From Catellatospora sichuanensis (GTDB taxonomy: Bacteria > Actinomycetota > Actinomycetes > Mycobacteriales > Micromonosporaceae): DNA of 64,000 nucleotides. The notes beneath the pieces are model-generated. The model did not search any database. It was not told where the DNA came from and was given only the letters and a program-made list of their open reading frames with translations. Positions 33,135-36,216 of this stretch are shown one piece after another. Where the stretch lies: positions 129,105-193,104 of the forward strand of contig NZ_ML660188.1 of assembly GCF_007483665.1 (NCBI RefSeq). The letters are read 5' to 3'. The translations under genes were made by a program, and so were the position numbers. Positions within the stretch are counted from its first letter, which is position 1. Each line of letters opens with the position of its first letter.

Positions 33135-35621
33135 TCAGACGTGGATCTGGCGGGTGATCGTCGGGTCGGTGATCGCGGCGTCCCGAGCGAGCAGCATCGC
33201 CTTGCTGAGGATGACCGAGAGCACCCGGTCGCCGTCGAACGGCAGGAACACCCCGCCGGTGCCCGCCGCGGAGCTCTGGTTCGGCACGATGCACAGGTAC
33301 TGGTCGTTCGGGCTCATCAGGATGTTGCCCGAGCCCAGGTGGATGCGGTAGGTGCGCAGGTCGCCGCGTACCACCAGGAAACGGTCCTCGACCGTGGCCC
33401 GGTCGGCGATCGCCAGCCGGGGCACGATCCTGGCCAGCAGGTCGCGGCGGGTCTGCGCGGTGCCGGACAGGCCGCCGAAGCTGTACGAGTTCCAGTAGTC
33501 CTGGAACCGCCCCTCGGGACCGCCGTCCTGCCAGGTCGGGTCGTTGCCGACGCTGGCGACGCCGACGAACAGGTCCACGTCGCGCATGATCTCGCTGAAC
33601 ACCAGCGGAGGGATCTCGGCGAGCGGCAGCCCGTCGGCCGGCGGGTGCTGCCAGCCGTGGCTGTATCCGCCGCCGGAGGCGTGCGCCGTGTGCTCGCGGG
33701 CCCCGATGGCGTAGAAGCGCACCTGGTCGGTGACGATGCGCAGGTAGGCGCCGGTCTCGGTGGTGTCGTCGCCGCCGTAGCCGTCGCCGACGCCCTCCAC
33801 CCAGTACTCGGCCCGCAGGCCCCATTCGGGCAGGTCCCGGGTCGCGGGCGGGTACTCGTCGTCGACCATCAGCCGCAACTTGTTGCGCCAGCCGCGGGTC
33901 GCCGCGAGGGCGTGGAACTGGTGCTGGCGCAGCACGTGCGCGGCATACCGGTTGGAGTAGGTGCCGGTGTTCTCCTCCGCGGCGGTGAGCACGTACACCT
34001 CGCGGTGGGCCTGCTTGAAGGGCTGCACCACCTGGTCGCGCTCCAGGCGCTCACGCCAGGCGAGCACCTCCTCGACCGGACGGCCGATCGGATGCCACAA
34101 CCGCACCGCCGCGTCCGGGCCGGCCACCACCGGGGTGCCGTCCAGGCCGGTCAGGGCCTGCTCGGCCCATGCGCAGGCCTGGTCGTCGACCGTCCAGATC
34201 AAGCGGCGCGCGATCGTGCCCAGCAGCGGGTGGTCGAGGTGGCGTTCCCGCCAGGCCGCGAACCGCCAGACACGCTGGGCGAGGAACTGCCGGTCCAGGC
34301 GCTCGGCCTGGGCGGACAGCATCTTCTCGAGATCCTTGACGGCCGCCTTCAGCTCGCCGAGGTCCTCGGCGTGGTCGCGGCGCACCGAGGTGGGCGGCGA
34401 CTTCACGGGCCGCCCACCTGCACTGAACCAGGTGGTGCGCACCCCGGCCGCGCCGACGGTCGTCTCCGCGCGCACGTCGCCGAAGGCGTCGATCCGCCGG
34501 CCGACCTCCGTCAGCCCGTATGCGGGCACGGCCAGTTCCTCCACCTCGTCCCGGGTCAGGCCGAGCGCCGCCGCGCGCGCATCGAGGGCGGTGGTGAGCT
34601 CCTTGAGCGTGCCCTTGTAGGTGACCCGCGCGGACAGCCGGGCGAGCTGCGCCAGCGCGGCCTCGGACCCGCACCGCGCCAGCATCTGCACCGCCGTGTT
34701 GGCGATCTTCGGGTTGCGCGGGCCGATCCCGGCCGCCTTGCGCAGCGACGTCTCCACCAGCGCGCCCAGCAGCCGGGCGGTGTCGTCGTGCGCGGGCAGC
34801 AGGCCGATCAGCCAGACGAGCCCGCGCAACGTGATCGTGTTGTACGGGTCGTAGGCCTCGTTGACGTCCGGCTCGTAGCCGCCGCGCACGAGCCGCTGCG
34901 TGCGCGGGCGTCCGACCAGCGACAGCCAGCCGGTCAGCACCGTCCGGGCGGCCTCGTCACCGACCGCGGCCAGCAGCCGCCGACCGGGCTGCTCGAATTT
35001 CGAGGTCATCTTCGCGCTGGTGGCGGTCGCGGCATGAGCCACGACGGCGGCCCACGGCTCACCGAGTTCGGCAAGGTCTTCCAGCGCCCGGTCGGCCCAG
35101 GCCTCACCCGGGTTGAGCAGCGGCGCGTCGAGTCCGGACAGCATCTCGTCGAGCTTGGCCATGCCGTGATAGCTCATCTGGCTGGTACGGCGCATGGCCG
35201 CCACGTACGGCAGCGGCACCGGCCGCCCCAGTTCGACCAGTTTTCGGGCGTCGAGGAGGTTGACCGCGTCGTGGGTGCTCCACCGCGTGCCCGCGATGTG
35301 CAGCGCCAGCTCGATCCGGTCCACCTCGTCGGGCAGGTGCAGCGTGCGCCTCAGACGCGTGACGAGTTCGAGCAGGTTCTCGTTCACGCCCGCCCGGGTC
35401 TCCCCGCGCATGTACGCGATCAGGGCGAGCACCAGCTCGTGGCGGCCCGGCACGCTCATCGGCCGCAACACGTCCTCCGCGGACGGGTTGGCGAAGCCCC
35501 AGGCCCCGCTGTTGACCTCGACCATCTCGACGAGCCGGGCCACGATCCCGTCCACGCCACCGGTGTCGACGGCCGCCTGCAGTGCGGCGACCTGCCCCGG
35601 GTATTCAGCCAGCTGCGTCAT
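33135..35621 (-). CDS. DUF4132 large protein, partner of the Gly-Gly protein
   Basis: An 828-residue soluble protein. The first ~450 residues are helical repeats of the HEAT/armadillo sort (ALAQLARLSARVTYKGTLKELTTAL; LVWLIGLLPAHDDTARLLGALVETSLRKAAG). The rest is the DUF4132 domain, ending LGSGNILMSPNDQYLCIVP and SKAMLLARDAAITDPTITRQI, which is the strongly conserved family end. A cysteine in QYLCIVP is part of that conserved stretch. No known enzyme motif is seen. DUF4132 proteins (also in E. coli MolR/YehI relatives) have no settled function. Its ATG shares the A of the upstream stop (TGATG), so it is made together with the 128-residue protein. Confidence 0.85.
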   Translation of the reverse strand: MTQLAEYPGQVAALQAAVDTGGVDGIVARLVEMVEVNSGAWGFANPSAEDVLRPMSVPGRHELVLALIAYMRGETRAGVNENLLELVTRLRRTLHLPDEVDRIELALHIAGTRWSTHDAVNLLDARKLVELGRPVPLPYVAAMRRTSQMSYHGMAKLDEMLSGLDAPLLNPGEAWADRALEDLAELGEPWAAVVAHAATATSAKMTSKFEQPGRRLLAAVGDEAARTVLTGWLSLVGRPRTQRLVRGGYEPDVNEAYDPYNTITLRGLVWLIGLLPAHDDTARLLGALVETSLRKAAGIGPRNPKIANTAVQMLARCGSEAALAQLARLSARVTYKGTLKELTTALDARAAALGLTRDEVEELAVPAYGLTEVGRRIDAFGDVRAETTVGAAGVRTTWFSAGGRPVKSPPTSVRRDHAEDLGELKAAVKDLEKMLSAQAERLDRQFLAQRVWRFAAWRERHLDHPLLGTIARRLIWTVDDQACAWAEQALTGLDGTPVVAGPDAAVRLWHPIGRPVEEVLAWRERLERDQVVQPFKQAHREVYVLTAAEENTGTYSNRYAAHVLRQHQFHALAATRGWRNKLRLMVDDEYPPATRDLPEWGLRAEYWVEGVGDGYGGDDTTETGAYLRIVTDQVRFYAIGAREHTAHASGGGYSHGWQHPPADGLPLAEIPPLVFSEIMRDVDLFVGVASVGNDPTWQDGGPEGRFQDYWNSYSFGGLSGTAQTRRDLLARIVPRLAIADRATVEDRFLVVRGDLRTYRIHLGSGNILMSPNDQYLCIVPNQSSAAGTGGVFLPFDGDRVLSVILSKAMLLARDAAITDPTITRQIHV

Positions 35622-36007
35622 CAGCCACCGACCAGCGGCACGAGCTTCAGGAACGTGATCTCGACACCGCGGTGCAGTCGAAGGTCGGCTTCGAGGTCCT
35701 CGACCTGCCGGTCGTCGACGAGCACCACGAACCCGTTGCGGGAGAACGCGTCCACCGCGCGGCTGAACTGCTCCTCGGCATCGACCTGCCGGTGCTTGCT
35801 CATCCGGAACCCGCTGCGCGTGTGCTCGGTGCCGCCGGGCTGCACCAGGCCGCGGAAGTGGTCGCCGCCGGCCGCGTTGTGCTCGGCTACCTCCTGGAAC
35901 ACCCGGCGCCGGATGATCTCGCGCAGGGTCAGCTGCTGCTCGGAAATCTCCAACTGCCACGCTGTGCCGCGGTCGCCCGCGGTCGTCTCGTCGACAAAGG
36001 TCACCAT
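35621..36007 (-). CDS. Ubiquitin-like candidate ending in Gly-Gly, coupled to DUF4132
   Basis: A 128-residue protein. The start (VTFVDETTAG... WQLEISEQQLTLREIIRRRVFQEVAEHN) reads as strand-strand-helix. A variable middle follows, then GFVVLVDDRQVEDLEADL and GVEITFLKLVPLVGG at the very C-terminus. The order, the Q-x-E-D-L turn and the terminal Gly127-Gly128 match the beta-grasp fold of ubiquitin and ThiS/MoaD, whose C-terminal GG is activated for conjugation or sulfur transfer. This is judged by eye. ATG 36007 or 36013 starts it; it overlaps the DUF4132 ATG. No E1-like, E2-like or JAB gene is seen in the window. Confidence 0.7.
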   Translation of the reverse strand: MVTFVDETTAGDRGTAWQLEISEQQLTLREIIRRRVFQEVAEHNAAGGDHFRGLVQPGGTEHTRSGFRMSKHRQVDAEEQFSRAVDAFSRNGFVVLVDDRQVEDLEADLRLHRGVEITFLKLVPLVGG

Positions 36008-36216
36008 CGCCATGGCCGCGGAGTCTAGGGCGGTGCGCCGACATCCGCGCTCCCGCCACCGCTCGGACCTGTCCGACGGCGACCGGCCGAACGCGACGTC
36101 CGTGAGGTCTTGGCAGCGCATCGGCGGGCCCAAGTGGACCGGCTCCAGCCGTTCTCGGCACGTGTCGGGCGTTCAGGAGGAAACATCTGGAGCAGGGTGC
36201 GGCGGGAGGGGCGGCG

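What the first reader, a model, noticed from the sequence alone, without database searches (positions are those of the whole stretch)
33135..36007. DUF4132 protein coupled to a ubiquitin-like protein ending in Gly-Gly
The 128-residue gene overlaps the DUF4132 start (TGATG). Its ends read strand-strand-helix, and its last 36 residues line up by eye with ubiquitin: hydrophobic strand, charged turn, Q-x-E-D-L, hydrophobic strand, and a free Gly-Gly at the exact C-terminus. That combination suggests a beta-grasp modifier or sulfur carrier whose partner would be the helical-repeat plus DUF4132 protein, perhaps a bacterial conjugation-like, signalling or defence pair. What is seen: the coupling and the GG end. 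What is inferred: the fold and any conjugation. From memory, similar small proteins ending in FxKLVPLVGG occur beside DUF4132 genes in other actinomycetes.
Basis: partly seen in the sequence, partly recalled or inferred. Interest (0 to 1): 0.72.

Follow-up and report, generated by a model that had tools for sequence, protein, structure and literature searches.

The report
DNA-damage-linked ubiquitin-like protein and DUF4132 partner
A small bacterial protein that looks like a ubiquitin-type carrier, with a free Gly-Gly tail, is encoded together with a large protein of unknown function (DUF4132 plus DUF7737) in several groups of bacteria; close relatives have it behind a DNA-damage-type promoter, and a lineage without the partner also lacks the tail.

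Summary
It is a recurrent pair: all 30 other loci fetched by whole-protein match end in GG, 30 of 35 places have DUF4132 next, and it also occurs in Novosphingobium, Deinococcus and Bacteroides. New here: (1) the Ubl goes with DUF7737 (12 of 20 places with it, 0 of 17 without); (2) in one family, 16 of 16 readable homologues in genomes without DUF4132 lack GG; (3) a PafBC-type DNA-damage promoter precedes the gene in relatives (61 of 78 with at most one mismatch; 3 of 984 other genes; two mismatches in the window); (4) the Deinococcus radiodurans pair is DR_A0165-A0166, in the DdrO regulon. Conjugation is not shown: the genome's only E1 and JAB genes lie elsewhere, and the Bacteroides tail is SGRLW. 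Best reading: a DNA-damage-induced beta-grasp carrier whose tail serves its DUF7737 partner; covalent chemistry is plausible, unproven.

The parts
35621..36013 (-). Small beta-grasp-like (Ubl) protein, 130 aa (128 aa from 36007), ends LVPLVGG, no Pfam family
   Evidence: homologues
35624..35644 (-). Codons of the C-terminal tail LVPLVGG
33135..35621 (-). 828-aa partner: about 400 residues without a Pfam match, then DUF4132 (PF13569) and DUF7737 (PF24879); its ATG shares one base with the stop codon of the Ubl gene
33138..33458 (-). DUF7737 region (residues 722-828), whose presence goes with the Ubl; holds C777 (motif YLCIVP, codon 33291-33293)
36022..36044 (-). PafBC/RecA-NDp-like promoter ATGTCGGCG-N8-TAGACT: 2 mismatches in the 9-mer, exact N8 spacer and TANNNT, starting 31 bases before the ATG at 36013
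   Evidence: consensus from PMC5656591 (passage)

Best explanation
A two-protein module switched on by DNA damage. The small protein is a MoaD/SAMP/Urm1-like beta-grasp protein with a free Gly-Gly tail; the large one is a partner that uses this tail through its DUF7737/DUF4132 part. Proposed mechanism: the tail is activated in trans by the cell's only ThiF-type E1 and then handed to, or held by, the DUF7737 partner, either for attachment to target proteins or for sulfur transfer, during recovery from genotoxic stress. Shown: the gene pair, tail conservation, tail absence where the partner is absent, Ubl-DUF7737 association, a DNA-damage-type promoter motif in close relatives. Indirect: the fold (published prediction on a homologue). 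Inferred: PafBC control itself, activation by the shared E1, any covalent step, contact between the two proteins, the role of C777.
For: GG end in all 30 other loci fetched by whole-protein match, and in 82 of 82 in a partly tail-selected set. Two such operons in the window's own genome, C13 and C28. Contact with the partner: of 82 gaps counted, -1 in 52 and -4 in 14. In 197 class genomes, 13 of the 15 with a Ubl match have PF13569, against 29 of 197 overall. In 26 loci no gene family other than the two recurs in more than 5, by a crude gene caller. In 37 of the 47 above-cut-off DUF4132 places, the Ubl is beside 12 of 20 with DUF7737 (two of the 12 copies damaged; 7 without, 1 undetermined) and 0 of 17 without (hand-collapsed; Fisher P 7e-5). 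Family f62: 16 of 16 readable homologues in genomes without a PF13569 match lack GG; the one genome with DUF4132 has GG. Promoter TTGTCRGTG-N8-TANNNT within 80 bases upstream: 52 of 78 perfect, 61 with at most 1 and 72 with at most 2 mismatches, against 0, 3 and 7 of 984 other genes in the same loci. The D. radiodurans operon DRA0165-A0166 is in the DdrO/IrrE regulon (PMC8533742, passages); its motif is present in the record I fetched, 82 bases before the start (paper: -83). One ThiF-type E1 in the own genome. C777 is Cys in 85 of 85 DUF7737 ORFs called beside a GG-tailed Ubl and Ala in the Bacteroides partner.
Against: Bacteroides finegoldii keeps the pair with tail SGRLW, so GG is not needed by every DUF7737 partner. 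The own genome's only PF00899 and Prok-JAB matches are on contig C2, away from both pairs. C777 sits in a hydrophobic, strand-like motif and is also Cys in 14 DUF7737 ORFs without an adjacent Ubl, so it may be structural. Profile comparison with ThiS/MoaD and ubiquitin is not significant. GG is kept in some copies without an intact adjacent partner (L052, L072; G017; G197; G258, G132:C15). The f62 orphans are one lineage; as a 1-against-16 table P is 0.06, and only 5 of the 16 are in genomes at least 90% complete. The window promoter has 2 mismatches, and of 29 call-6/14 loci only 10 have at most 2. The DR_A0165 deletion was linked to oxidative stress and Trx1 binding (PMC9650054), not to conjugates.
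Confidence: 0.55

Rival explanations
1. Non-covalent subunit: the Ubl is a dedicated structural or regulatory subunit whose tail is buried in the DUF7737 partner (as MoaD docks its tail in MoaE; recalled), with no chemistry on the glycine.
For: Tail absent where the partner is absent; association through DUF7737; the Bacteroides pair has a non-GG tail together with Ala at the C777 position; no E1 or JAB beside the pair.
Against: An exactly C-terminal free GG in all 30 other loci fetched by whole-protein match is what adenylation needs; a docking peptide need not end there.
Confidence: 0.35
2. Sulfur carrier: the GG carries a thiocarboxylate made with the ThiF-type E1, and the DUF7737/DUF4132 protein is a sulfur-inserting enzyme for a cofactor, tRNA or redox factor needed after damage.
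For: Published similarity of DR_A0165 to MOCS2 and SAMP1 and its link to Trx1 and catalase (PMC9650054); PMC8533742 suggests a molybdopterin role for DRA0166; one E1 and four ThiS-family matches in the own genome.
Against: PF02597 (ThiS/MoaD) does not match the small protein; no third gene family recurs in more than 5 of 26 loci; PMC8533742 saw no change of moeA or moeB.
Confidence: 0.2
3. Counter-invader (defence) pair, as first suggested, related to the MoxR/vWA/DUF4132 clusters.
For: DUF4132 proteins without DUF7737 occur with MoxR-type ATPase, vWA and SWIM genes (E. coli yehI-yehQ; Sinorhizobium plasmid, with an AAA ATPase).
Against: No PADLOC match; no Ubl at 17 of 17 DUF7737-less places examined; DNA-damage-type promoter; no true relative in the viral and phage searches made.
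Confidence: 0.07

Closest known systems
D. radiodurans DR_A0165 (SEP068184) and DR_A0166
   Same: Homologous pair, tail LTALAGG, DUF5724-DUF4132-DUF7737 partner, DNA-damage regulon (PMC8533742, passages). The record I fetched is isolate DRR11; identity with the DR_A genes rests on thioredoxin next door, DUF4132 and the same motif
   Different: Reported as Deinococcus-only and without RDRM (PMC9650054, sections 32-35); both contradicted here. Tail and partner not discussed in what I read
MoaD/ThiS/CysO sulfur carriers (PF02597) with ThiF-type E1 and JAB
   Same: Small protein, free GG end, published fold similarity for the homologue DR_A0165
   Different: No PF02597 match; variable insert of up to about 50 residues; partner is DUF4132+DUF7737; E1 and JAB not in the operon
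Archaeal SAMP / eukaryotic Urm1 (E2-less conjugation served by one E1; recalled)
   Same: GG-ended protein, one E1-type gene in the whole genome
   Different: Fixed DUF4132/DUF7737 partner, DNA-damage-type promoter; conjugation not shown
Bacterial Ubl conjugation operons (CBASS Cap2/Cap3 and Bil, recalled; clusters of PMC1779556, passages)
   Same: Small protein with terminal glycine next to a larger partner
   Different: No linked E1 or JAB gene; no defence-family match
WGR-DUF4132 / MoxR / vWA / SWIM clusters (E. coli YehI-YehQ)
   Same: DUF4132 domain
   Different: No DUF7737 found, no Ubl

Membership tests
Ubiquitin-like beta-grasp superfamily | Beta-grasp fold | not testable with these tools
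Published prediction for the homologue DR_A0165 (PMC9650054)
Ubiquitin-like beta-grasp superfamily | Sequence-profile similarity to ThiS/MoaD or ubiquitin | tested here: inconclusive
   hhalign probabilities 0.09-2.5%; against the combined ThiS/MoaD set within 100 column-shuffled decoys. Controls: ubiquitin against these sets 0.09-0.33%, ThiS against two MoaD rows 1.7%, but ThiS against the longer ThiS-family rows 95%
GG-ended modifiers and sulfur carriers | Free C-terminal Gly-Gly | tested here: met
   Window and all 30 other loci fetched by whole-protein match; exceptions Bacteroides and f62 orphans
ThiS/MoaD family PF02597 | Match to the family model | tested here: not met
   No Pfam match at E 1
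Bacterial Ubl conjugation operons | Linked E1, E2 or JAB gene | tested here: not met
   Only PF00899 and PF14464 matches of the genome are on contig C2, not beside either pair. In 26 loci no third family in more than 5; the small families were not identified and no E2 model was searched
Bacterial Ubl conjugation operons | Isopeptide conjugates on targets | not testable with these tools
   Needs mass spectrometry
E2-less SAMP/Urm1-type systems | An E1 available in trans | tested here: met
   One PF00899 match in the own genome; weak, as 12 of 14 control genomes have one
DUF4132 (PF13569) and DUF7737 (PF24879) | Match above the curated cut-off | tested here: met
   177.7 and 140.6 bits, cut-off 27 each
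PafBC (RecA-NDp) regulon | TTGTCRGTG-N8-TANNNT promoter | tested here: inconclusive
   Strong in relatives (61 of 78 with at most 1 mismatch); window has 2 mismatches at the same place; expression not tested
Known anti-phage systems | Match to PADLOC-DB | tested here: not met
   No match at E 1

The most novel reading that the evidence does not exclude
An undescribed bacterial ubiquitin-like conjugation branch dedicated to DNA damage: PafBC (Actinobacteria) or DdrO (Deinococcus) induces a GG-ended Ubl and its DUF7737/DUF4132 partner, the shared ThiF-type E1 activates the Ubl, and DUF7737 receives it as a thioester on C777 and transfers it to repair proteins, acting as a new type of ligase.
Probability: 0.2. 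Interest if true: 0.95.

Novelty: new variant of a known kind. Interest (0 to 1): 0.74.

Why it matters
It would give DUF4132/DUF7737, domains of unknown function, a partner, a regulon and a testable chemistry, and connect two separate reports on D. radiodurans (DdrO regulon; SEP068184) to a module found in several phyla. If the tail is used covalently, it is a new branch of bacterial ubiquitin-like biology tied to the DNA damage response. The GG-less orphans and the Bacteroides tail are natural controls.

Tried and rejected
Profile comparison to ThiS/MoaD/ubiquitin: no signal, little power. PDB sequence search with the family profile and with the partner: chance-level hits only. An apparent Ubl-DUF4132 fusion (L162, G247) was rejected because its frame is broken. 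Viral origin: A1, P0003, P0006 and the DUF7737 alignment A6 in viral contigs gave no relative except one 20-residue match in L203, judged chance; P0006 and the Bacteroides DUF4132 protein found nothing in phage records; the window protein itself was not searched there. A LexA box before seven other-subgroup Ubls: best 4-5 mismatches. The small gene before the Acetobacter DUF4132 does not look like the Ubl. Alignment A5 had two rows in a wrong frame and was replaced by A6.

Rows set aside or tallied by hand: L047 and L056 left out of the 78-locus promoter count (their match starts inside the protein; 3 mismatches each). L255 left out of the f62 tail count (unreadable frame). Two split segments merged, giving 35 places from 37 rows; the 30-of-35 adjacency compares by eye. 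The 12-of-20 / 0-of-17 table collapses duplicate places and adds the Ubls of L162 and L132 seen; the script's own uncollapsed counts are 12 with both, 14 with DUF7737 only, 20 with neither; ten of the 47 places were not classified; many had only 1.5 kb flanks. The 40 regions were chosen because no Ubl had been seen there, so the DUF7737-less rows are no unbiased sample. One search printed minus-strand matches in the wrong orientation; only its plus-strand rows were used.
Full report
What is there. The small protein has no Pfam, NCBIfam or PADLOC match at E 1; the large one has DUF4132 and DUF7737 in Pfam. The window's genome has a second such pair on contig C28, with a diverged GG-ended Ubl and its own DUF4132 protein, and three further DUF4132 places with no Ubl found around them. 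The genome is probably Catellatospora or close kin (88% identity of the Ubl to C. coxensis; inference).

Is the coupling real? Searching 81 related genomes with the whole protein gave 28 with a match. The 31 loci fetched, the window's own included, all end exactly in GG. Of 35 distinct places, 30 have a PF13569 match just downstream on the same strand (tallied by hand). The other five: the next gene is cut by a contig end and not classified (G044:C60), two have a truncated DUF4132 remnant (G028, and the second copy in G007), one has only a partial Ubl match (G012), one is an intact Ubl beside a NADAR gene (G017). In 197 genomes of the class, 15 have a Ubl match and 13 of these have PF13569, which 29 of 197 have; the two others are G272, a deletion product of the pair, and G197, whose Ubl is intact. 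A pattern scan of 84,980 species' genomes gave 378 relatives, of which 80 were kept; with a Novosphingobium and a Nonomuraea locus, 82 of 82 end in GG and 80 of 82 have DUF4132 next. That scan used a tail pattern, so its GG count is biased. Outside Actinomycetota I saw the pair in Novosphingobium (tail LKGG), Deinococcus (pairs in three annotated records, tails read in D. radiodurans and D. ficus: LTALAGG) and Bacteroides. For other phyla only plasmid records could be searched, so the true range is unknown.

Where GG fails. Bacteroides finegoldii has a homologue (A1 profile E 6e-6) ending LSGRLW beside DUF5724-DUF4132-DUF7737. In a phylum sample, 4 of the 10 genomes with a match had homologues without GG. 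In their family (f62, 35 genomes) 18 genomes have a homologue; only G361 has PF13569, and its Ubl has GG; the other 17 have no PF13569 match, and all 16 that can be read lack GG. Five of those 16 genomes are at least 90% complete. Four were checked for neighbours and have no DUF4132 nearby. They form one lineage, so this is one or few events (Fisher P 0.06), but it is what a tail serving the partner predicts. Some copies elsewhere keep GG without an intact adjacent partner.

DUF7737, rather than DUF4132 as such, goes with the Ubl. I classified 37 of the 47 above-cut-off places of the DUF4132-led survey and collapsed duplicates by hand: of 20 with DUF7737, 12 have the Ubl (one copy internally deleted, one frameshifted), 7 do not, 1 is at a contig edge; of 17 without DUF7737, none does (Fisher P 7e-5 with the undetermined one counted as absent). 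DUF4132 proteins without DUF7737 include E. coli YehI beside MoxR-type, vWA and SWIM genes and a Sinorhizobium plasmid cluster. The partner has one well conserved Cys, C777 (YLCIVP): 85 of 87 aligned rows; the exceptions are Bacteroides (Ala) and Acetobacter (Phe, no Ubl upstream). Of 112 DUF7737 ORFs, 85 of 85 called beside a GG Ubl have Cys, 1 of 1 beside a non-GG Ubl has Ala; of 26 called without Ubl, 23 have Cys and one each Phe, Gly, Arg. Of the 23, five do have a Ubl that the distance rule missed and four rows (three places) are damaged or split copies, leaving 14 unpaired with Cys. So the Cys is suggestive, not proof; its hydrophobic setting also fits a buried strand.

Promoter. [quoted passage not shown] Within 80 bases upstream of the Ubl start, 52 of 78 named loci match perfectly, 61 with at most one and 72 with at most two mismatches; in the 60 best rows printed the motif starts 29-31 bases upstream. 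Other genes in the same loci give 0, 3 and 7 of 984; random windows from these loci give 22 perfect in 20,000, about what falling on the real sites would give (my estimate). The loci are related and mostly Streptomyces; among 28 non-Streptomyces ones 13 have at most one and 22 at most two mismatches (including L047 and L056). The window has ATGTCGGCG-N8-TAGACT (two mismatches, 36022-36044). More distant subgroups mostly lack it: 10 of 29 loci have at most two mismatches. In D. radiodurans the operon DRA0165-A0166 is upregulated on DdrO depletion and DRA0166 protein rises with mitomycin C in an IrrE-dependent way (PMC8533742, passages). In the isolate record I fetched, the published motif lies 82 bases before the start (paper: -83), against the statement in PMC9650054 that there is none. 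DdrO control is thus published; PafBC control is my inference from the motif.

Fold and mechanism. The fold was not predicted here. PMC9650054 (sections 32-35 read) predicts DR_A0165 to resemble MOCS2 (5MPO) and SAMP1 (3PO0), reports that its deletion raises catalase activity and that it binds Trx1, and calls it Deinococcus-only; the family seen here contradicts the last point. By eye, NGFVVLVDDRQVEDLEADLRLHRGVEITFLKLVPLVGG lines up with ThiS/MoaD and ubiquitin ends, and hhalign sets GG on GG, but its score is within decoys; known distant pairs such as ubiquitin and ThiS fail too, closer ones do not. The genome has one PF00899 match and one Prok-JAB match, both on contig C2, the JAB beside a ThiS-family match, so any activation would be in trans. 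I hold the module and its tail dependence as well supported, DNA-damage wiring as well supported for close relatives and Deinococcus, covalent use of the tail as open with roughly even odds, and ligase activity of DUF7737 as a bold reading.

In print. The library holds 3 papers with DUF4132 and none with DUF7737, DUF5724, PF13569 or PF18991; in the passages seen of those three nothing links DUF4132 to a GG-ended protein. PMC7159879 and PMC1779556 (passages) treat other Ubl systems. Most subscription papers are not held, so earlier notice cannot be excluded.

Noticed in passing
G016 and G038: DUF4132 expansions: 20 PF13569 matches in one 11 Mb genome and 10 in another; the copies fetched lack DUF7737 and a Ubl.
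   Followed up: partly
L234 4881-5435 (-): In G017 a GG-ended Ubl without DUF4132 lies directly before a NADAR-domain gene (PF08719, E 3.6e-50), possibly a hint to ADP-ribose chemistry.
   Followed up: partly
L245 1747-6459: Streptomyces sp. F12 plasmid: a DUF4132 gene close to an ATP-dependent DNA ligase and dnaE.
   Followed up: no
L199 around 7916: RDRM GGTTATGCTATTTACATAAC before the D. radiodurans Ubl gene; two papers disagree on its presence (PMC8533742 yes, PMC9650054 no).
   Followed up: yes
G132:C4 (L195), G272:C4 (L197), G258:C1 (L163): Internally deleted Ubl, Ubl-DUF4132 deletion product, and Ubl with truncated DUF4132: signs of recent decay of the pair.
   Followed up: partly
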